Below, in pieces: positions 15,657 to 39,103 of a DNA stretch of 64,000 nucleotides (its first letter is position 1; every line of letters begins with the position of its first letter). Under the pieces are notes generated by a model. The model worked only from the letters and a program-made list of their open reading frames with translations. It was not told where the DNA came from and searched no databases. The stretch covers positions 186,001 through 250,000 of the forward strand of contig JAPOWG010000011.1 in NCBI GenBank assembly GCA_026707745.1, written 5' to 3'. A program made the position numbers and the translations under genes. The DNA is from Chloroflexota bacterium. GTDB taxonomy: Bacteria; Chloroflexota; Anaerolineae; Aggregatilineales; Phototrophicaceae.

Positions 15657-15661
15657 TGCTT

Positions 15662-15845
15662 GGACCTGCTGTATTCGTGATAGAACTATATGTGCCGAGC
15701 CAACATTCTTTTGACGGGAGTCTATCTTTGGTAGCTAATGTAATAGGCCCGAGCCAAAACAGAGGTTATCGAGCGATTCCCAACCTGTAATTTTTGCAGG
15801 TTCGCGACACTATGGCTACACGGTACAGTGGGCCCGAGATCATAG
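15662..15845 (+). ncRNA. Candidate 6S-like regulatory RNA
   Basis: About 184 bases lie between a good promoter and a strong terminator, without a coding frame. The two ends pair: GGACCTGCTGTA (15662-15673) with TACAGTGGGCCC (15824-15835), 11 of 12 pairs, and further in GTG/CAC and TAG/CTA (15677-15683 with 15816-15821). The middle is a large open region (15684-15715 and 15782-15815) with a small hairpin on its 3' side, AACCTG/CAGGTT (15782-15802). The apex pairs again: GGGAGTC (15716-15722) with GATTCCC (15775-15781). A closing helix, a large central bubble with a 3'-side hairpin, and an apical helix are the architecture of 6S RNA, which holds RNA polymerase. The assignment rests on hand folding. 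Confidence 0.55.
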
Positions 15846-24222: not shown

Positions 24223-24249
24223 GGTTGCAATTGCATATCCAATGAAAGA

Positions 24250-24517
24250 CTGTGAACCAGAGTAGTACGCATCGTCGCGGTGTACAGAGAATCGCTAGTA
24301 GCTGTGAATGCGAGACAACCAGCGATGCGGAATGGACTGGGGAGTTGCGCAGGTGAAAGGGTGGACCGAGTAGCTTGCGACGGTGAGCGCTCCGTTATCT
24401 AGGCGCGGGATATCGATCGTGAGGTCTGTATCCGCAGAGCGATCTGCCCTGGGCAGATAATCAAGGTGGTACCGCGGGAACCCTTCTCGTCCTTGAATGG
24501 ATGATTCGGGTTTTTTT
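24250..24517 (+). promoter_or_regulatory. T-box riboswitch, tRNA-Trp specific, controlling trpE onward
   Basis: The conserved T-box sequence AAGGTGGTACCGCGG is at 24463-24477, followed by CTTCTCGTCC as in other T-boxes. About 130 bases upstream, stem I shows the usual GCGGAA-specifier context: GAA, then TGG at 24333-24335, the tryptophan codon, then AC. The bases of the T-box loop would pair with the uncharged 3' end of tRNA-Trp and favour an antiterminator over the terminator at 24492-24517. The specifier fits the genes behind it. Stem I outlines (AGTAGT..., AGAGAATCGCTAGTAG) are recognised but not folded in full. Confidence 0.92.
24492..24517 (+). terminator. Terminator of the trp T-box
   Basis: CTTGAAT (24492-24498) pairs with ATTCGGG (24504-24510), two G-U pairs, loop GGATG, followed by seven T. 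A further AACCC (24479-24483) could extend pairing with GGGTT. Moderately stable, as usual for a regulated terminator. Confidence 0.75.
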
Positions 24518-31939: not shown

Positions 31940-32011
31940 TAGTGTATCCTCTACGATTGAAATGCGTTTAGCCAGTCCGCTTAGATCCTTAACCCATAAT
32001 ACGAACGATAT

Positions 32012-32083
32012 GGTAGGGGCGACTCGCTGAGTCGCCCGAAACCAAGACCTTGCGTTTGGGCGAGCCACCGGCTCGCCCCTACC
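32012..32083. repeat. Composite palindromic repeat (two units, inverted)
   Basis: GGTAGGGGCGA (32012-32022) is repeated inverted as TCGCCCCTACC (32073-32083). Inside are two perfect hairpins: GGGCGACTC-GCT-GAGTCGCCC (32017-32037) and GGGCGAGCC-ACC-GGCTCGCCC (32058-32078). A third unit of the same family is at 47367. The gap between trpA and the aro promoter holds nothing else recognisable. Confidence 0.8.
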
Positions 32084-32155
32084 GAGTTATCGCTTTTTGA
32101 GAGATAGGGCTTGGTGCGCCAAGAATCTGAAATGCACCTGTTTACTATCGGGATG

Positions 32156-32184
32156 TTGACAGCCATCAAATGACAGTGTAAGCT
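32156..32184 (+). promoter_or_regulatory. Promoter of the aro/tyr operon
   Basis: -35 TTGACA (32156-32161), 17-base spacer, -10 TAAGCT (32179-32184); start expected near 32191, leaving a leader of about 200 bases before aroH. Confidence 0.7.
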
Positions 32185-32218
32185 CTGGACCACATGGTGT
32201 TGAGGATGTCATAAACAC

Positions 32219-32305
32219 ATGCAACATTTACAGTTTGCCAGATTGCGTTATTATTATTTCCCAAACTGCATAGACCGGGTTGGGGTGTTTCGCGCTGGCA
32301 ACTGA
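32219..32305 (+). CDS. Leader peptide with Tyr-Tyr-Tyr-Phe run (attenuator of the aro/tyr operon)
   Basis: 28 codons from ATG 32219 to TGA 32303-32305. Codons 11-14 (32249-32260) are TAT TAT TAT TTC, that is Tyr-Tyr-Tyr-Phe, in the context LRYYYFPN; there is another Phe at codon 6 and codon 24. TGAGG (32201-32205) lies 13 bases before the start. The Tyr/Phe codons sit in the loop of a hairpin, CAGTTTG (32231-32237) with CAAACTG (32262-32268). An intrinsic terminator follows 29 bases after the stop and the first enzyme gene 24 bases after that. This is the order expected for ribosome-mediated attenuation: a ribosome halted for lack of charged tRNA-Tyr would let the operon be read. Confidence 0.75.
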   Translation: MQHLQFARLRYYYFPNCIDRVGVFRAGN

Positions 32306-32333
32306 AGATCAAGTCGATTAGGACAATACATCG

Positions 32334-32365
32334 AGGCGCAGAGTGGAATACTCAGCGCCTTTTTT
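32334..32365 (+). terminator. Attenuator terminator of the aro/tyr operon
   Basis: AGGCGC (32334-32339) pairs with GCGCCT (32355-32360), an A-A mismatch, then GAGT (32341-32344) with ACTC (32350-32353), loop GGAAT, and T-run 32360-32365. A competing pairing is possible between GCGCT (32292-32296) at the end of the leader peptide and GGCGC (32335-32339), a candidate antiterminator. Confidence 0.85.
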
Positions 32366-32389
32366 GTTGATTGAGGAGCGTTCAAATTG

Positions 32390-32782
32390 ATGATGAGAGG
32401 GGTACGGGGCGCCACCACGGTGGCATCCAACTCAAACGATGCGATTCTGGCGGCGACTCAGGAACTGTTGGGCATCATGATCGAGCGCAACGGCATCGTC
32501 GAAGATGATGTGGCGAGCATCCTGTTCACCGTCACGCCGGAGCTCGACGATACCTATCCCGCCAGAGCGGCGCGCATGATGGGCTGGACGCGCACGGCCC
32601 TAATGGGCTTTCAGGAAGCGGATGTTCAGCATGGTCTGCCCATGTGTATTCGCGTGCTGATTCACTGGAATACTGACAAGACCATTGATGAAATCAAACA
32701 TGTTTTCCTGCGTGATGCTGTGCAGTTGCGTCCCGACCTGGCGGATGATTATAAAGCGCACGAAGCTGGGGAATCGTCATGA
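32390..32782 (+). CDS. aroH: Chorismate mutase, AroH type
   Basis: 130 residues from ATG 32390; TTG 32387 and ATG 32393 are close alternatives, with GAGGAG at 32373-32378. Monofunctional chorismate mutase like the B. subtilis trimer: MMRGVRGATTVASNSNDAI, TPELDDTYPARAARMMGWTRTALMGFQEADVQHGLPMCIRVLIHWNT. The catalytic Arg and Glu residues of the B. subtilis enzyme are matched by R in RGVRGATT and by E/R in the EADV...CIRV segment. Converts chorismate to prephenate. Overlaps tyrA by ATGA. Confidence 0.93.
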   Translation: MMRGVRGATTVASNSNDAILAATQELLGIMIERNGIVEDDVASILFTVTPELDDTYPARAARMMGWTRTALMGFQEADVQHGLPMCIRVLIHWNTDKTIDEIKHVFLRDAVQLRPDLADDYKAHEAGESS

Positions 32783-33666
32783 TCGGGGCAAGTTTTCGGG
32801 CGCGTCATCTGTCGATAGTCGGCCTGGGGCTGATGGGGGGATCGCTCGCTCTCTCGCTGCGTGATCACGCCGATCATATCACCGGCATCGACTCTTGCGA
32901 GGCGACGCGTGCCTACGGGCTGCAGGGGGGATTCGTCGACTGCGCCACGGGTGATCTGTTTGAAGGTGTCAATCACGCGGACGTTGTCATACTTGCCGCG
33001 CCGGTGCGGGTCATCGTCGAAATGCTGAAGATGCGCATCGGCTCCTATTTGCGCTCGAACACCCTGGTCGTCGATATTGGCAGCACCAAGCAGGATATTG
33101 TCGATGCCATGGCAAACCTGCCCGTCGGCGTCAACGCAATGGGCGGGCATCCCATGACCGGCAAGGAAAACGGGGGCATCGAAGAATCCGATCGCGCCCT
33201 GTATGCGAATCGCCCCTTTGTGCTCTGCCCGTCCCGCCGCACCACGCCGGCGGCGCGGCTGCGGGCCATATCGCTGGTGGAAACGCTGGGCGCTGTGCCT
33301 ATCGAAATGGAAGCGGAAAGGCACGATCAGATCGTGGCGGGCATCAGCCACTTGCCTTATCTCTTGAGCGCAACCTTGGTGGCGACGGTCGCCAATCAAG
33401 CGGAGGATGACAGCGCCTACTGGGAACTGGCGGCGGGGGGATTTCGCGATACCAGCCGCCTGGCAGCCAGCGATGTGACGATGATGGGGGATATCTTGAG
33501 TACCAATACCAAGGCTGTCGCCACATTGCTGGCGCAGTTTCGCATGCAGCTGGCCATGCTGGAGACGATGTTAATCGGCGGCGACGAGGGGCGCTTGAGC
33601 CAGTCCTTGCAACCGATCAGGCGCGCGCGAAAGGAATGGGCGGACAACTATGAAAAAGGACGATAA
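32779..33666 (+). CDS. tyrA: Prephenate dehydrogenase
   Basis: 295 residues. NAD(P)-dependent oxidation of prephenate to hydroxyphenylpyruvate. Rossmann motif IVGLGLMGGSLALSLRDH at residues about 12-29; VVDIGSTKQDIVDAM and GGHPMTGKENGGIEESDRALYANRPFVLCP are the conserved substrate region with the His-Pro-Met motif; the C-terminal helical domain has ISHLPYLLSATLVATV. No ACT domain at the C-terminus, so no visible feedback domain; this makes transcript-level control by tyrosine more relevant. Overlaps aroA by 17 bases. Confidence 0.93.
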   Translation: MIGASFRARHLSIVGLGLMGGSLALSLRDHADHITGIDSCEATRAYGLQGGFVDCATGDLFEGVNHADVVILAAPVRVIVEMLKMRIGSYLRSNTLVVDIGSTKQDIVDAMANLPVGVNAMGGHPMTGKENGGIEESDRALYANRPFVLCPSRRTTPAARLRAISLVETLGAVPIEMEAERHDQIVAGISHLPYLLSATLVATVANQAEDDSAYWELAAGGFRDTSRLAASDVTMMGDILSTNTKAVATLLAQFRMQLAMLETMLIGGDEGRLSQSLQPIRRARKEWADNYEKGR

Positions 33667-34966
33667 ACATAGCCAGTTGCTGGTGTCTGCCGGAGGCAAG
33701 CTGCTTGGCAGCACGACGATACCGGGCGATAAATCGCTCTCGCACCGCGCAGCCATGTTGGGGGCGATTGCCGCGGGCAGTTCACATATTCGCAATTGGC
33801 TGGCGGCTGGCGATACGGCAGCGACGCTGGGCGCGATGCGTGACTTGGGGGCGAAGATCGAGCGCCACGACGCCAATACCTTGACCATTCACGGTGGAGA
33901 ACTACGCGAGGCGGATCAAGCGCTTGATTTGAAGAACGCCGGGACCGGCATTCGCTTGCTGGCAGGCATTATGGTGGGGCAGCCTTTTCCCAGCGTATTG
34001 GACGGAAGCGAGCAATTGCGACGGCGACCGATGAAGCGTATCACAAGTCCGTTGCAAAGCATGGGCGCGCAAATCAGCTCGACGGATGGATGCTGCCCGC
34101 TGAGGATTCAGCGCTCTGAATTGCGCGGCGTCACCTGCGAATTGCCTGTGGCCAGCGCTCAAGTGAAGAGCGCAATCCTGCTGGCGGCGCTCTTTGCCGA
34201 TGGCCCGACCACGGTGATTCAGCCGGGACCAACGCGCGATCATACGGAACGCATGCTGGGTTCCATGGGCGTTAGAATTGACTTCGATGACGAGAATCAT
34301 AACAAGATGACACTACATCCGCCGGAAGAGCTTACGCCGCTCGACATGACAATTCCGGGCGATTTTTCCTCGGCGGCCTTTCTTTTGGTGGCGGGATTGT
34401 TGACGCCGGACAGCGATTTGACAGTCACAGGCGTCAATTTGAATCCGACGCGAACCGGTCTGCTGGATGTTTTGGAAGCGATGGATGCTGACATTAGCAC
34501 TGACTACCGTACTATCGAATCTGGCGAAATGATCGGCGAGATCAGGGTCCGGACAAGCGAATTGAAGGGCATTGAGATCGACGGAGAAACGGTTGTAAGA
34601 ATGATCGACGAATTCCCGATCTTGATGGTCGCCGCATTGCGCGCCGAAGGCGAGACGATTGTGCGGGATGCGCGCGAACTGCGCGTGAAGGAGACAGATC
34701 GCATAGCGGTTATGGCGAGCGAATTGCGCAAAATGGGCGCGGAAATCGAAGAGCGTGAGGACGGATTCCGGATCCTTGGACGACAACAATTGTCGGGCGC
34801 CGATGTGGATGGACACGACGATCATCGCATCGCGATGAGCATGACGATCGCGGGAACAATTGCTTCCGGTGAAACGCTCGTCACTGATGCGGCTTGCGTG
34901 GCGGATTCCTTCCCCGGTTTCGCGAAGACCTTGATCGACCGTGGCGCTCATATCGAGCCGGCATAA
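33650..34966 (+). CDS. aroA: 3-phosphoshikimate 1-carboxyvinyltransferase (EPSP synthase)
   Basis: 438 residues, two-domain EPSP synthase that joins shikimate-3-phosphate and phosphoenolpyruvate. GDKSLSHRAAMLGAIAAG is the first conserved block (Lys binding both substrates), LKNAGTGIRLLAG is the PEP loop, DGSEQLRRRPMKRI, LPVASAQVKSAILLAAL, and RELRVKETDRIAVMASELRKMGA follow, with HDDHRIAMSM near the end. The PEP loop N-A-G-T-G-I-R-L differs from the E. coli N-A-G-T-A-M-R-P form. Its start lies inside tyrA. Confidence 0.97.
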   Translation: MKKDDKHSQLLVSAGGKLLGSTTIPGDKSLSHRAAMLGAIAAGSSHIRNWLAAGDTAATLGAMRDLGAKIERHDANTLTIHGGELREADQALDLKNAGTGIRLLAGIMVGQPFPSVLDGSEQLRRRPMKRITSPLQSMGAQISSTDGCCPLRIQRSELRGVTCELPVASAQVKSAILLAALFADGPTTVIQPGPTRDHTERMLGSMGVRIDFDDENHNKMTLHPPEELTPLDMTIPGDFSSAAFLLVAGLLTPDSDLTVTGVNLNPTRTGLLDVLEAMDADISTDYRTIESGEMIGEIRVRTSELKGIEIDGETVVRMIDEFPILMVAALRAEGETIVRDARELRVKETDRIAVMASELRKMGAEIEEREDGFRILGRQQLSGADVDGHDDHRIAMSMTIAGTIASGETLVTDAACVADSFPGFAKTLIDRGAHIEPA

Positions 34967-35003
34967 GATCGTTGATAGAACTAGCGGCGGCGGAGAAGAA
35001 GTC

Positions 35004-35846
35004 ATGAGGAAAAACCGAGTTGGACTCATCGGCTTTCCGGTTGAGCACAGCTTGAGCCCGGTCATGCATAACGCGGCCTTCGAAGCGCTGGGCATGTCGG
35101 ACTGGTTCTACGATGCCATGTCGATACCGCCCGATATCTTGCGCTATGGGGTGCAGGAACCAAAAAATCATGGCTACATCGGCATCAATGTGACGGTGCC
35201 ACACAAGGAAGCCATGATGGAACTGGTGCGCCCGGATAAAATCGCGCGGGCGATCGGCGCGGTCAATACGGTTGACTTCAGGAACAATAGCGGTACGAAT
35301 ACCGATGCCGATGGCATCGTCGACGATTTGCGGGCGAACGGCGTCCCGATCGCGAACCAGCGAGTTTTGGTATTGGGAGCGGGAGGCGCGGCGCGGGCGG
35401 TGGTCTATGGCTTGGCGCGGGCGGGCGCTAAAGTGGCGATTGTCAATCGTACCAAGTCGAGAGCCGAACGCTTGGTCGCGGATCTTGGAAGCGCGGCTGG
35501 CATCGACGGTATCGCAGTGATGACGCTGGATGAAGCCGCGGATTGGAGCATGTCGCTTATCATCAACTGTACCTCCGTCGGCTTGCATCCCCATGTCAAT
35601 CAGTCGCCCTGGATTTACGGCGTGCCTTTCCCGGATGGAGTGACGGTTTATGACACAGTTTACCGCCCGGCGAACACGGCGCTGATGCAGCAATGCATCG
35701 CTCGCGGCGGCCGTGCAATTGGCGGCTTGGGCATGCTGGTGCGGCAAGGCGCGCTTTCATTCGAGATCTGGACGGGCGTCGCGCCGCCGGTTGATGTGAT
35801 GGCTCGCGCGGCGCAGGCGGCTCTTGAACGAACGAATAAAGTTTAG
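35004..35846 (+). CDS. aroE: Shikimate dehydrogenase
   Basis: 280 residues from ATG 35004 (GGAG 9 bases upstream); the frame extends back to 34941 into aroA. Reduces 3-dehydroshikimate with NADPH. VGLIGFPVEHSLSPVMHNAAFEALGM is the substrate domain, GINVTVPHKEAMM holds the catalytic Lys, NTDADGIVDDL the catalytic Asp, VLVLGAGGAARAVVYGLARAGAKVAIVNRTKSRAERL is the NADP site with N-R-T, and VYDTVYRPANTALMQQC is conserved. 99 bases to aroC. Confidence 0.96.
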   Translation: MRKNRVGLIGFPVEHSLSPVMHNAAFEALGMSDWFYDAMSIPPDILRYGVQEPKNHGYIGINVTVPHKEAMMELVRPDKIARAIGAVNTVDFRNNSGTNTDADGIVDDLRANGVPIANQRVLVLGAGGAARAVVYGLARAGAKVAIVNRTKSRAERLVADLGSAAGIDGIAVMTLDEAADWSMSLIINCTSVGLHPHVNQSPWIYGVPFPDGVTVYDTVYRPANTALMQQCIARGGRAIGGLGMLVRQGALSFEIWTGVAPPVDVMARAAQAALERTNKV

Positions 35847-35945
35847 CTGGCAGGCATAGACCCGGTGGCGCCAATGACAAGTGCTGATAAAGGCGGATTA
35901 ACGGTTAGAGACGGAATTCAGATCGAGGTCAAGGACTAAAGCGAT

Positions 35946-37124
35946 ATGCCAATTCGATTTTTCACCGCGGGCGAAAGCCACGGCCCGGGCTTGACCGCCA
36001 TTCTGGAGGGCATGCCTGCCGGTTTACCGCTCTCTGCCGAAGATATCAACAGAGATTTGCGCCGGCGTCAGAAGGGCTACGGTTCCGGCGGGCGCATGCA
36101 GATCGAAAAGGACAAGATCGTCATCACTTCAGGCGTAATGAACGGCATGACGACGGGCGCCCCCATCGCGCTGCACGTTCAGAATCGCGATTTCAAAAGC
36201 TGGAAGGAACGCGATATCACGCCGATCACCACGCCGCGCCCGGGACATGCGGATTTGACCGGGGCCCTCAAATATGGTTATCGCGAATTGCGGCTGTCGC
36301 TGGAACGGGCCAGCGCCCGGGAAACGACGATGCGCGTGGCCATCGGCGGGATTTGCAAGCGCTTCCTGGACGAGTTCGGCATCAAGATTGACGGATACGT
36401 GGTTCAATTGGGAGATGTCAAGGCGGATCTGGCTTCCATGCCCTTGGAGGAGAGGATCGCTCGCAACGAGGACAACGATGTGCGTTGTCCTGATGCGGCC
36501 GCCGCCGAACGCATGCACGCGGCAATCCGGCAGGTCAAAATAGACAAGGATACGCTGGGCGGCGTCTTTGAAGTTGTCGCCCGTGGACTGCCGCCGGGAT
36601 TGGGATCGCATGTCCATTATGACCGAAAATTGGACGGCAAACTGGTGGCGGCGATGGTCAGCATACAAGCGATGAAGGGGGCGGAAATCGGCAGCGCTTT
36701 CGAGAACGCCGGCAAGCGCGGCTCGCAGGTGCACGACGAAATCACCGTTGATGCCGACGGCAATTTGTCACGCAAGACGAACCGCGCCGGCGGCTTGGAA
36801 GGCGGGATTTCCACCGGCCAGCCGATCGTGGTGCGCGTGGCGATGAAGCCGATATCCACAATGCTGCGCGGCGCTGGTTCTGTTGATCTGGCCAGCGGCG
36901 AACCCAATATGACGGTTTACGAACGCAGCGACTTCTGCGCCTTGCCACGGGCCGTGCCCGTAGGCGAGGCCATGATGGCAATTGTGTTGACCGAGGCGCT
37001 GCTGGAAAAACTGGGCGGGGACAGCATTGAAGAAATGAAGCCGCGCTTCGCCGCTTTGCGCCGCAACCGGGTGGGCGACCTGCCGATGGACAATATCGAG
37101 TGGCGCTTTGGATATGACGTATGA
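35946..37124 (+). CDS. aroC: Chorismate synthase
   Basis: 392 residues. FMN-dependent last step of the shikimate pathway. RFFTAGESHGPGLTAILEGMPAGLPL, RRRQKGYGSGGRMQIEKDK, GHADLTGALKYGYRELRLSLERASARETTMRVAIG, and AGGLEGGISTGQPIVVRVAMKPIST are textbook signatures, including the His residues near the flavin. SD AAGGA lies 11 bases before ATG 35946. Its stop overlaps the start of aroKB by ATGA. Confidence 0.98.
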   Translation: MPIRFFTAGESHGPGLTAILEGMPAGLPLSAEDINRDLRRRQKGYGSGGRMQIEKDKIVITSGVMNGMTTGAPIALHVQNRDFKSWKERDITPITTPRPGHADLTGALKYGYRELRLSLERASARETTMRVAIGGICKRFLDEFGIKIDGYVVQLGDVKADLASMPLEERIARNEDNDVRCPDAAAAERMHAAIRQVKIDKDTLGGVFEVVARGLPPGLGSHVHYDRKLDGKLVAAMVSIQAMKGAEIGSAFENAGKRGSQVHDEITVDADGNLSRKTNRAGGLEGGISTGQPIVVRVAMKPISTMLRGAGSVDLASGEPNMTVYERSDFCALPRAVPVGEAMMAIVLTEALLEKLGGDSIEEMKPRFAALRRNRVGDLPMDNIEWRFGYDV

Positions 37125-38635
37125 GCGGCGGGGAAAACATCGTCATCACCGGCTTTATGGGAACGGGCAAATCAACGGTCGGGAAGTTGGTCGCGGCTAA
37201 GCTTGAGCGACAGTTCGTCGATATGGACCTTGTCATCGAAGAACGTTTTGGCTTGCCGATCCCGGAGATCTTCGGGCGGCATGGCGAAGCGCTATTTCGG
37301 ACCGTCGAACGTGGATTGGCTCACGAGCTCTCCACACAATCCGGTCTGGTGATCGCGACTGGCGGCGGCGCGCTTGTCCCTGAGGAAATGCGGGATCTGA
37401 TGGGGCGGACAGGCAAGCTGATTTGCTTGAACGCCGACCAGACCGAGATAAGCGCCCGACTGTCGGAAGCCGATAATCGGCCGCTGGCGTCCAACTGGCA
37501 GGCGCTGTTTGAACAGCGACAATCAGCCTATGCCCGGATTCCCAATCAAATCGAGACGAGTGGCAAAACAATTGAAGCTATCGCCTGCGAAATCGTCGCG
37601 ATGTGTGATGGCCGGATTCATGTACGAACACCGGTCGGCGGCTATGATATTTGGATCGGCGAAGGGATACTTAAAGATATAAACCGGCATGTCGACAGGC
37701 TCGGATTGCGCGGACACGCGGTAATCGTGACCAACGAGACGGTCGCTCCGCTCTATGCCGAGGCTTTGGCGAGCCGCTTGCCGCGTGCGGACATCATAGC
37801 TGTGAAGGATGGCGAAGAATACAAGAACCTGGAGACCGTGTCTTCGATCTATGATGAGATGCTTGCGCTTGGCGCCGACCGCGGCACGACCTTGATCGCG
37901 CTCGGCGGCGGCGTTCTGGGAGATATGGCCGGTTATGTCGCCGCGACCTATATGCGCGGGATCCGATTGATCCAAGTGCCGACTACCTTGCTTGCGATGG
38001 TGGATTCGAGTGTGGGCGGCAAGGTCGGTATCGACCTGCCGCAGGGCAAAAACTTGATTGGCGCCTTCAAACAGCCCGAAGCGGTCTTGGTTGATACTGA
38101 CGTTATGGAGAGCTTGCCGCCGCTGCAATGGCGCTGCGGCATGGCGGAAGTGATCAAACACGGCTTGATTTCGCGGCCGGCGCTGCTGGATCTTGAAAAC
38201 TGGGAGAAGGAAAACCTGGTCAACCTGCTGAGGCATGCGATCCAGGTGAAAGTCGAAGTGGTCGAAGAAGATCCTTACGAACAGGGAATCCGCGCCCACC
38301 TCAATTTGGGACATACTTTCGGGCACGCGATCGAAAAACTAACGCAGTACAGCGTCCCGCATGGCGAGGCGGTCGCTATCGGCATTTGCAAAGCGGCGCG
38401 CTTGTCGCGCAATTGCGGGTTGATTGATGAACAGTTAGTCCAGAAAGTCATATCCACATTTGAACGAATTGGCTTGCCGGTGGGTATCGAATTGAATCCC
38501 GAAGAATGGTACGCGGCCATGTCTACCGACAAAAAGTGGAAGGCGGGCAAATCACGCTTTGTCCTGTTGAAAGCCTTAGGGGAAGCGACAGTTGTTGAGG
38601 GATTGCCCAAAGAAGAAGTCTTGGCGGTCTTGTAA
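37121..38635 (+). CDS. aroKB: Bifunctional shikimate kinase / 3-dehydroquinate synthase
   Basis: 504 residues, a fusion. Residues 1-165 are shikimate kinase: Walker A GFMGTGKST (11-19), FVDMDLVIEERFGLPIPEIFGRHGEALFRTVE (D and R contact shikimate), ATGGGALV and RPLASN with the lid Arg. Residues about 170-504 are dehydroquinate synthase: LGADRGTTLIALGGGVLGDMAGYVAATYMRGIRLIQVPTTLLAMVDSSVGGKVGIDLPQGKNLIGAF, EVIKHGLI, and HLNLGHTFGHAIEK with the zinc-binding His and Glu. One polypeptide therefore carries steps 2 and 5 of the pathway. No internal stop or frame break. Confidence 0.96.
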   Translation: MSGGENIVITGFMGTGKSTVGKLVAAKLERQFVDMDLVIEERFGLPIPEIFGRHGEALFRTVERGLAHELSTQSGLVIATGGGALVPEEMRDLMGRTGKLICLNADQTEISARLSEADNRPLASNWQALFEQRQSAYARIPNQIETSGKTIEAIACEIVAMCDGRIHVRTPVGGYDIWIGEGILKDINRHVDRLGLRGHAVIVTNETVAPLYAEALASRLPRADIIAVKDGEEYKNLETVSSIYDEMLALGADRGTTLIALGGGVLGDMAGYVAATYMRGIRLIQVPTTLLAMVDSSVGGKVGIDLPQGKNLIGAFKQPEAVLVDTDVMESLPPLQWRCGMAEVIKHGLISRPALLDLENWEKENLVNLLRHAIQVKVEVVEEDPYEQGIRAHLNLGHTFGHAIEKLTQYSVPHGEAVAIGICKAARLSRNCGLIDEQLVQKVISTFERIGLPVGIELNPEEWYAAMSTDKKWKAGKSRFVLLKALGEATVVEGLPKEEVLAVL

Positions 38636-38653
38636 CGAAGGACGAAAAAGAAT

Positions 38654-39103
38654 ATGTCAAAAGGGATTCTGATCTTGCACGGTCCCAATTTGAACCTGCT
38701 GGGTACGCGGCAGCCGGAGATCTATGGCAGCATGACGCTGGAGGATATCAATAGCGCGATCCGGCAACATGTCCGGCCTTTTGAGATCGAGTTGCGTGTA
38801 GAACAGTCGAATCACGAAGGCGATTTAATTGATCGCTTGCACGAGGCGCGTGGCTGGGCGGATGGCGTTGTCTTCAATCCGGGCGCTTATACGCATACAT
38901 CGATCGCATTGCGCGACGCCATCTCCGCCATCGCTTTGCCTGTGATCGAAGTCCATATTTCGAATATTCATGGGCGGGAGTCCTTTCGACACAAGTCGGT
39001 TTTGTCTGGTGTATGCCTGGGTCATATTGCCGGTTTTGGCTGGCATAGCTATGTCTTGGCGGTGGATGCCCTGCTCCGTCAATGGGAAATTGTGGCTAGC
39101 TAA
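38654..39103 (+). CDS. aroQ: 3-dehydroquinate dehydratase, type II
   Basis: 149 residues. Type II (AroQ) dodecameric dehydratase that forms dehydroshikimate. ILILHGPNLNLLGTRQPEIYGSMTLEDI (with catalytic Tyr and Arg), EQSNHEGDLIDRLHEA, NPGAYTHTSIALRDAI and PVIEVHISNIHGRESFRHKSVLSGVCLGHIAGFG with the catalytic His and lid residues. Last gene of the aromatic operon; 113 bases separate it from glnA and no terminator is evident. Confidence 0.97.
   Translation: MSKGILILHGPNLNLLGTRQPEIYGSMTLEDINSAIRQHVRPFEIELRVEQSNHEGDLIDRLHEARGWADGVVFNPGAYTHTSIALRDAISAIALPVIEVHISNIHGRESFRHKSVLSGVCLGHIAGFGWHSYVLAVDALLRQWEIVAS

What the first reader, a model, noticed from the sequence alone, without database searches (positions are those of the whole stretch)
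32156..32392. Tyr/Phe leader peptide and terminator in front of the aro/tyr operon: likely ribosome-mediated attenuation
Between a TTGACA-17-TAAGCT promoter and aroH lies an ATG-TGA frame of 28 codons whose codons 11-14 are TAT TAT TAT TTC. They sit in the loop of a hairpin (32231-32237 with 32262-32268). A strong terminator (32334-32365) follows and a possible antiterminator pairs 32292-32296 with 32335-32339. The genes behind it start with chorismate mutase and prephenate dehydrogenase, that is tyrosine synthesis, and TyrA has no visible ACT domain. The codon run matching the operon product is hard to explain by chance. Such attenuators are well known in Proteobacteria and some Actinobacteria; I do not know of one described for an aro/tyrA operon in this kind of bacterium.
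Basis: partly seen in the sequence, partly recalled or inferred. Interest (0 to 1): 0.85.

Follow-up and report, generated by a model that had tools for sequence, protein, structure and literature searches.

The report
Tyrosine-codon switch before tyrosine genes
In front of the tyrosine-making genes of an uncultured Chloroflexota bacterium lies a 28-codon reading frame with three tyrosine codons in a row and a terminator-like hairpin, an arrangement most of its relatives examined keep, and it would likely let the cell read through into those genes only when tyrosine runs short.

Summary
The ORF (32219-32305), promoter-like site and terminator hairpin (32333-32361) are present. Of 56 aroH upstream regions (the window's and 55 relatives'), 54 pass an aromatic-ORF-plus-terminator test; it hits 0 of 352 window segments, 5 of 984 flank segments and 9 of 1820 shuffles. 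In 128 upstream regions with a terminator, Tyr (71% against 1% in shuffles) and then Phe (30% against 4%) are the enriched residues. The terminator shows compensatory changes. Stops differ within the genus (14 of 31 early) while the RNA around them is kept, which argues against a functional peptide. Codons track operon content: Tyr where tyrA follows aroH, Phe+Tyr where DAHP synthase or prephenate dehydratase follows.

The antiterminator (32287-32299 with 32336-32349, or 32292-32297 with 32353-32358) is conserved, but in the window no stronger than chance by energy.

Best reading: ribosome-mediated attenuation sensing charged tRNA-Tyr. The mechanism is known; my searches found none described in Chloroflexota and none reported to respond to tyrosine. 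Regulation is untested.

The parts
32156..32184 (+). promoter-like site TTGACA-17-TAAGCT; a transcript would start near 32191
   Evidence: sequence; 102 of 120 leaders have a site of >=9/12 within 100 nt upstream of the ORF against 12.5% of shuffles; not listed by the stricter scan
32219..32305 (+). leader ORF, 28 codons, MQHLQFARLRYYYFPNCIDRVGVFRAGN
   Evidence: relatives
32249..32260 (+). control codons TAT TAT TAT TTC (Tyr-Tyr-Tyr-Phe)
   Evidence: Tyr >=3 of 6 codons in 71% of 128 regions, 1% of shuffles
32231..32247 (+). region 1, predicted to pair with 32291-32304 when no ribosome covers it
   Evidence: MFE; 69% of cells paired in 31 genus members, 5 pairs with changes on both sides (160 of 500 shuffles reach 5)
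32259..32285 (+). hairpin right after the Tyr codons, outer pairs 32259-32263 with 32281-32285 and inner 32266-32268 with 32276-32278, CATA in its loop; possibly a polymerase pause hairpin
   Evidence: 82% of cells paired (with two further outer pairs), no covariation beyond shuffles; CATA 31 of 31
32287..32304 (+). region 2, predicted to pair with the terminator (antiterminator) when the ribosome stalls on the Tyr codons
   Evidence: energy not above shuffles in the window
32333..32365 (+). intrinsic terminator, stem 32333-32361, T run 32360-32365
   Evidence: 98.9% of cells paired; 15 cells with both sides changed (0 of 500 shuffles), in 4 pairs (142 of 500 shuffles)
32387..32782 (+). aroH, monofunctional chorismate mutase
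   Evidence: TIGR01796, PF07736
32779..33666 (+). tyrA, prephenate dehydrogenase without an ACT domain
   Evidence: PF02153 + PF20463, no ACT model at E<=1
33650..39103 (+). aroA, aroE, aroC, aroK-aroB fusion, aroQ: rest of the gene cluster

Best explanation
The leader at 32191-32365 most likely is a ribosome-mediated transcription attenuator that senses charged tRNA-Tyr and controls aroH-tyrA and the shikimate genes behind them. Shown by sequence: a promoter-like site, a 28-codon frame with Tyr-Tyr-Tyr-Phe, and a terminator-like hairpin before aroH, kept together in relatives. Inferred: with enough Tyr-tRNA the ribosome runs to the stop codon, covers region 2 (32287-32304), and the terminator 32333-32361 forms, so transcription ends. 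When Tyr-tRNA is short the ribosome stalls on the TAT codons and covers region 1 (32231-32247); region 2 is then free to pair with the terminator sequence, the terminator fails, and the operon is transcribed. Without any translation, region 1 pairs with region 2 and the terminator forms.
For: 54 of 56 aroH upstream regions carry aromatic ORF plus terminator, against 0 of 352, 5 of 984 and 9 of 1820 in three controls. Residue specificity: >=3 in 6 codons is reached by Tyr in 0.71 (shuffles 0.01) and Phe in 0.30 (0.04) of 128 regions; lesser excesses for Ala (0.30/0.15), Ile (0.12/0.04), Thr (0.12/0.07) and, at >=4, Leu (0.12/0.03). Class survey: 22 of 26 regions. Terminator kept by compensatory changes. 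Two alternative stop positions, 14 early and 17 late of 31, lie at the 5' and 3' edges of region 2 in an otherwise conserved RNA, as expected if what counts is the terminating ribosome sitting near region 2. Region 1:region 2 shows changes on both sides, e.g. GCCAG/CTGGC against CCCAG/CTGGG (L008) and TTCAG/CTGGA (L027, one G-U). Folding of the window before the 3' arm exists: with a ribosome stalled at Tyr, 8 of 12 bases of the terminator's 5' arm pair upstream at 0.8 or more; with one at the stop, its lower arm is free. Codon content follows operon content: >=2 Phe/Trp in the 8 residues in 34 of 40 leaders with DAHP synthase or prephenate dehydratase as the first searched gene after aroH, 6 of 32 with tyrA. 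Promoter-like site in 102 of 120. TyrA lacks an ACT domain, leaving room for control of expression.
Against: No expression or translation data. Window antiterminator: energy p 0.29, 0.32 (5' arm) and 0.27 (3' arm); genus 0 of 31 and 5 of 31 at p<=0.05; 87% of cells paired but no covariation. With the full terminator present, the stalled state of the window still has the antiterminator in only about 0.35-0.46 of the ensemble, so it would have to win kinetically; with the ribosome at the stop, the upper arm still shows pairing of 0.5-0.8. Over 91 leaders the stalled-state pairing of the 5' arm beat shuffles at p<=0.05 in 15 only. Region 1:region 2 keeps only 69% of cells, and two of its covariation measures are no better than shuffles. 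The number of terminator pairs with both sides changed (4) is reached by 142 of 500 shuffles. The Shine-Dalgarno-like GAGG (32202-32205) is 13 nt from the ATG, further than usual. 4 of 26 class and 56 of 63 other Chloroflexota regions lack the element directly before aroH. The codon/operon match is not corrected for shared descent.
Confidence: 0.9

Rival explanations
1. The ORF makes a small functional or arrest peptide (like TnaC) whose own sequence acts, instead of serving only as a codon counter.
For: In the genus the residues PNCI after the Tyr run are kept in most members (26 of 31 by eye).
Against: The frame behind the Tyr run is not kept: a 1-nt difference gives two stop positions (14 and 17 of 31) while the nucleotides stay; across families the peptide behind the aromatic run is different; the Tyr number varies.
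Confidence: 0.05
2. A T-box or another tRNA- or metabolite-binding riboswitch sits here and the ORF is incidental.
For: T-boxes are common in these genomes: 100 of 100 class genomes at E<=0.001, 82 over the cut-off; three in this one, one before trpE in this window. A CATA motif is conserved at nucleotide level.
Against: No Rfam family at E<=1 in 32100-32450; the Tyr/Phe enrichment is in-frame codon content and follows operon content.
Confidence: 0.03
3. The hairpin is a constitutive terminator or processing site and the Tyr run has no role, inherited by common descent.
For: The terminator is the best-paired helix of those tested in the genus.
Against: Aromatic runs are kept in families with very different leaders, with changed residues, lengths and starts, and far above shuffles.
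Confidence: 0.02

Closest known systems
aroR leader before aroF, Corynebacterium glutamicum (Neshat 2014, not seen; known through passages of review PMC11802643)
   Same: leader peptide with Phe-Tyr-Phe, ribosome stalling, aromatic pathway operon
   Different: different phylum, controls DAHP synthase, responds to Phe and not to Tyr according to the review; here the run is Tyr-dominated and tyrA follows
aroF-tyrA operon of E. coli: attenuation hypothesised by Camakaris 1980 (not seen; named in a passage of PMC8632094)
   Same: a tyrosine-pathway operon suggested to be attenuated
   Different: a hypothesis as cited; other phylum, other first gene; I compared no sequence with it
uORFC-13-1 motif before aroF, Acholeplasma (PMC8632094, passages)
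   Same: short ORF, terminator, aromatic pathway gene
   Different: 24 sequences, at least one Phe codon, other phylum
pheA (pheL) and trp (trpL) attenuators of E. coli (review passages; anatomy recalled)
   Same: codon run, terminator, alternative helices
   Different: amino acid and phylum; no Rfam leader family matches here
T-box leaders of Chloroflexota (PMC2494555 and PMC3766115, passages)
   Same: same genomes, same task of sensing tRNA charging
   Different: direct tRNA binding, no translation; here used for trpE, not for the tyrosine operon

Membership tests
ribosome-mediated (leader-peptide) attenuator | short ORF with a run of codons for the amino acid made by the operon | tested here: met
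ribosome-mediated (leader-peptide) attenuator | intrinsic terminator between ORF and first gene | tested here: met
   (sequence and pairing only)
ribosome-mediated (leader-peptide) attenuator | antiterminator exclusive with the terminator | tested here: inconclusive
   conserved, not above chance by energy in the window, 0 and 5 of 31 in the genus; 40 of 89 other leaders p<=0.05 in either register
ribosome-mediated (leader-peptide) attenuator | region 1:region 2 helix that frees the terminator without translation | tested here: inconclusive
   69% of cells paired; covariation score reached by 10 of 500 shuffles, cells with both sides changed by 6, pairs with both sides changed by 160
ribosome-mediated (leader-peptide) attenuator | promoter upstream of the ORF | tested here: met
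   (sequence only); the stricter scan does not list it in the window
ribosome-mediated (leader-peptide) attenuator | translation of the ORF and response to tRNA charging | not testable with these tools
   needs experiment
T-box leader (RF00230) | matches the covariance model | tested here: not met
known Rfam amino-acid leaders | matches a family model | tested here: not met
   no family at E<=1 in 32100-32450

The most novel reading that the evidence does not exclude
An old aromatic-amino-acid sensing leader family of Chloroflexota, in most Anaerolineae examined and in some genomes of other classes, re-tunes its control codons with the operon it governs: Phe+Tyr where DAHP synthase or prephenate dehydratase sits in the operon, Tyr alone where those genes are elsewhere, as in this genus. 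In part of the family (e.g. L080, L083, L093, L048, L049) the antiterminator works by region 2 capturing the loop and 3' arm of the terminator (GGAGCGTT with AACGCTCC) rather than the 5' arm as in trp.
Probability: 0.35. Interest if true: 0.7.

Novelty: new variant of a known kind. Interest (0 to 1): 0.6.

Why it matters
The passages I read describe leader-peptide attenuators in Proteobacteria, Actinobacteria and Firmicutes (PMC2965389) and suggest that the known attenuator motifs arose in gamma-proteobacteria (PMC3766115). A system spread through a class of Chloroflexota, with no match to the Rfam leaders, in genomes that also use T-boxes, would show that such switches arose or persisted outside those phyla and can coexist with T-boxes within one pathway (T-box on trpE, leader peptide on aroH-tyrA, 8 kb apart). 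Tyrosine as main signal would be a new specificity: the one Tyr-containing leader whose test I saw reported (aroR) did not respond to Tyr. The codon/operon match offers a natural series for testing how such sensors are re-tuned.

Tried and rejected
T-box and Rfam families: none at this place. A second copy of the leader core in the genome: one exact match of CAAACTGCATAG, at aroH; one-mismatch matches are about as frequent as in the reversed-pattern control. Leaders before pheA and DAHP synthase of the same genome: none found in about 700 nt upstream. Viral contigs: no relative of aroH. Energy tests of the antiterminator gave weak support. Pairing of region 2 with the 3' arm in the genus: 97% of cells but nearly invariant, so silent on covariation; in A3 (20 relatives outside the genus, picked by me for alignability) 84% of cells, 2 pairs with changes on both sides, covariation score reached by 31 of 500 shuffles. 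The exact leader core was not found in two genus genomes without an aroH match (G002, G007). Planctomycete-titled aroH loci as a negative control: 0 of 10 pass. Script one search failed on file names; one search oriented four loci wrongly (L006, L010, L018, L029), redone; one search failed on a wrong frame, redone.

Full report
What is there. Between trpA (ends 31939) and aroH (32387) lie a promoter-like TTGACA-17-TAAGCT, a 28-codon ORF with TAT TAT TAT TTC at codons 11-14, and a hairpin followed by T's. The cluster behind is aroH, tyrA, aroA, aroE, aroC, aroK-aroB and aroQ; TyrA shows the two prephenate dehydrogenase domains and no ACT domain at E<=1. The region folds better than 197 of 200 shuffles and matches no Rfam family at E<=1.

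Organism. The window's own record is unnamed. Contigs of its genus that carry titles (L057-L073) are called Chloroflexi, Chloroflexota, Anaerolineae or Anaerolineales bacteria; two somewhat more distant loci are titled Aggregatilineales (L083, L086). Class and order are inferred from these titles and from the kinship labels of the search.

Relatives. aroH was found in 56 of 61 related genomes, the window's own included. All 56 upstream regions were read (four orientations corrected in 17). By a fixed test (ORF of 10-55 codons, >=3 Tyr/Phe/Trp in 6 codons, stop within 110 nt of a terminator) 54 of 56 pass. With the 80 named loci there were 136 upstream regions; 91 unique ones pass: 54 from the first set and 37 of the loci L074-L136 (63 loci, four of which, L077, L078, L102 and L115, repeat the first set). 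Loci L057-L073 repeat genus members; the 10 planctomycete-titled loci do not pass. Controls: 0 of 352 window segments, 5 of 984 flank segments, 9 of 1820 shuffles; 80 of the 91 have >=4 aromatic residues in 6.

Wider survey. Of 400 phylum genomes 225 have aroH. I read 89 of these upstream regions: 29 of the 30 returned loci (the other is the window) and 60 that I picked by hand, aiming at different genera (L212 is cut to 211 nt). 22 of 26 in the class pass, 7 of 63 outside it, two of those 7 (L225, L229) weak. Absence directly before aroH does not exclude a leader before another first gene.

Codons. Over the 128 of 204 upstream regions with a terminator in the last 300 nt, Tyr reaches >=3 in 6 codons in 71% (shuffles 1%) and Phe in 30% (4%); Ala (30% against 15%), Ile (12% against 4%), Thr (12% against 7%) and, at >=4, Leu (12% against 3%) show lesser excesses. 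In the genus the run is Tyr (2 to 4 codons, at times followed by Phe or broken by Pro or Cys); in other families Tyr and Phe mix, at times with Trp. For 72 of 120 leaders enough downstream DNA was at hand to look for tyrA, DAHP synthase, prephenate dehydratase, aroA and aroB by tblastn. Where the first of these after aroH is DAHP synthase or prephenate dehydratase, 34 of 40 leaders have >=2 Phe/Trp among the 8 residues ending at the last aromatic; where it is tyrA, 6 of 32 do (5 of 29 genus, 1 of 3 others). Spot checks by Pfam agree on L083, L093, L107, L110 and L126. DAHP synthase (fused here to a type II chorismate mutase) and prephenate dehydratase of this genome lie on other contigs, and I found no such leader before them. 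The comparison is not corrected for shared descent.

RNA. In 31 genus leaders (L005 left out as partial; alignment) the terminator pairs in 98.9% of cells; 15 cells in 4 pairs have both sides changed (cells: 0 of 500 shuffles; pairs: 142 of 500). The frame after the Tyr run is not kept: 14 stop early, 17 late, while TTCGCGCTGG and its surroundings largely stay. That speaks for an RNA role of this stretch and against a peptide role. Region 1 (32231-32247) with 32291-32304: 69% of cells, 5 pairs with both sides changed; cells with both sides changed are reached by 6 of 500 shuffles, the number of such pairs by 160 of 500. The hairpin after the Tyr codons pairs in 82% without covariation beyond shuffles. 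Antiterminator 32287-32299/32336-32349: 87% of cells, one pair changed on both sides, no covariation signal; the alternative with the 3' arm, 97%, nearly invariant. RNAalifold on the same alignment predicts the terminator and part of the middle hairpin only.

Switching. With the ribosome edge placed after the Tyr codons and the 3' arm not yet made, 8 of 12 bases of the terminator's 5' arm pair upstream at 0.8 or more; with the ribosome at the stop the lower arm is free, the upper arm still 0.5-0.8 paired. With the whole terminator present the stalled state keeps the antiterminator in only about 0.35-0.46 of the ensemble, so it would have to win kinetically. Against shuffles this is not special in the window (p 0.29; p 0.32 and 0.27). 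Over 89 leaders outside the genus the 5' register is better than shuffles at p<=0.05 in 28 and the 3' register in 19 (about 4.5 expected each); either in 40. In part of the order region 2 matches the terminator's loop and 3' arm (A3; L048 and L049). Which register switches is open.

Context. The same genome holds T-boxes before trpE (window 24243-24497) and before two genes that by their translation look like valyl- and phenylalanyl-tRNA synthetases (the second below the family's cut-off) (those two names are my reading of the sequence). T-boxes occur in 100 of 100 class genomes at E<=0.001, 82 over the cut-off.

Literature. Searches (two returned no paper; others showed part of their lists) turned up no leader-peptide attenuator described for Chloroflexota and no Tyr-responding one; most subscription papers are not in the library. 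Read as passages only: PMC11802643 (aroR, pheL, trpL), PMC1262725 (Actinobacteria: no conserved Phe/Tyr elements), PMC8632094 (uORFC-13-1 and the older hypothesis for E. coli aroF-tyrA), PMC2965389 (leader peptides in Proteobacteria, Actinobacteria and now Firmicutes), PMC3766115 and PMC2494555 (T-boxes in Chloroflexi), PMC4833913.

Verdict. A ribosome-mediated attenuator for tyrosine synthesis is strongly supported by comparative evidence. The helices of the switch are partly supported, and the response to tyrosine is untested. The mechanism is known; the phylum, the Tyr-dominated run and the codon/operon match are, as far as I could search, new.

Noticed in passing
24243-24497: T-box leader before trpE (114 bits), in the same window as the leader-peptide system; two further T-box matches in the genome (119 and 69 bits) stand before genes that look like valS and pheS.
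   Followed up: partly
CATA at 32269-32272, and related leaders: CATA lies 5-14 nt, mostly 8, after the last aromatic codon in 66 of 120 leaders (about 7 expected by shuffling), in 8 of 35 non-genus cases in another reading frame. Unexplained nucleotide-level motif.
   Followed up: partly
32284-32297: A G-10/Y-1/G+1 polymerase-pause pattern (recalled consensus) fits G32287, T32296, G32297 about 12 nt after the hairpin ending at 32284; it might synchronise polymerase and ribosome. By eye only.
   Followed up: no
32010-32088: REP-like inverted repeat (GTAGGGGCGACTCGCTGAGTCGCC...) with 43 matches listed in the genome, itself included; similar stretches are seen upstream of some other genus leaders (L028, L029).
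   Followed up: partly
15660-15838: 6S RNA (64 bits).
   Followed up: no
L239 (G000:C115): The genome's DAHP synthase match is fused to a type II chorismate mutase (PF01817), so this genome has a second chorismate mutase besides aroH; in the relatives checked, the operon-borne DAHP synthases carry a ferredoxin-like domain instead.
   Followed up: partly
L095, L100: Records titled Pleurocapsa minor and Bacteroidetes bacterium carry an aroH with the leader (L100's is nearly that of L091); likely mislabelled or mixed assemblies.
   Followed up: no
32206-32214: Mini-ORF ATG TCA TAA just upstream of the leader start, seen in L001-L004 but with its ATG lost in L008.
   Followed up: no
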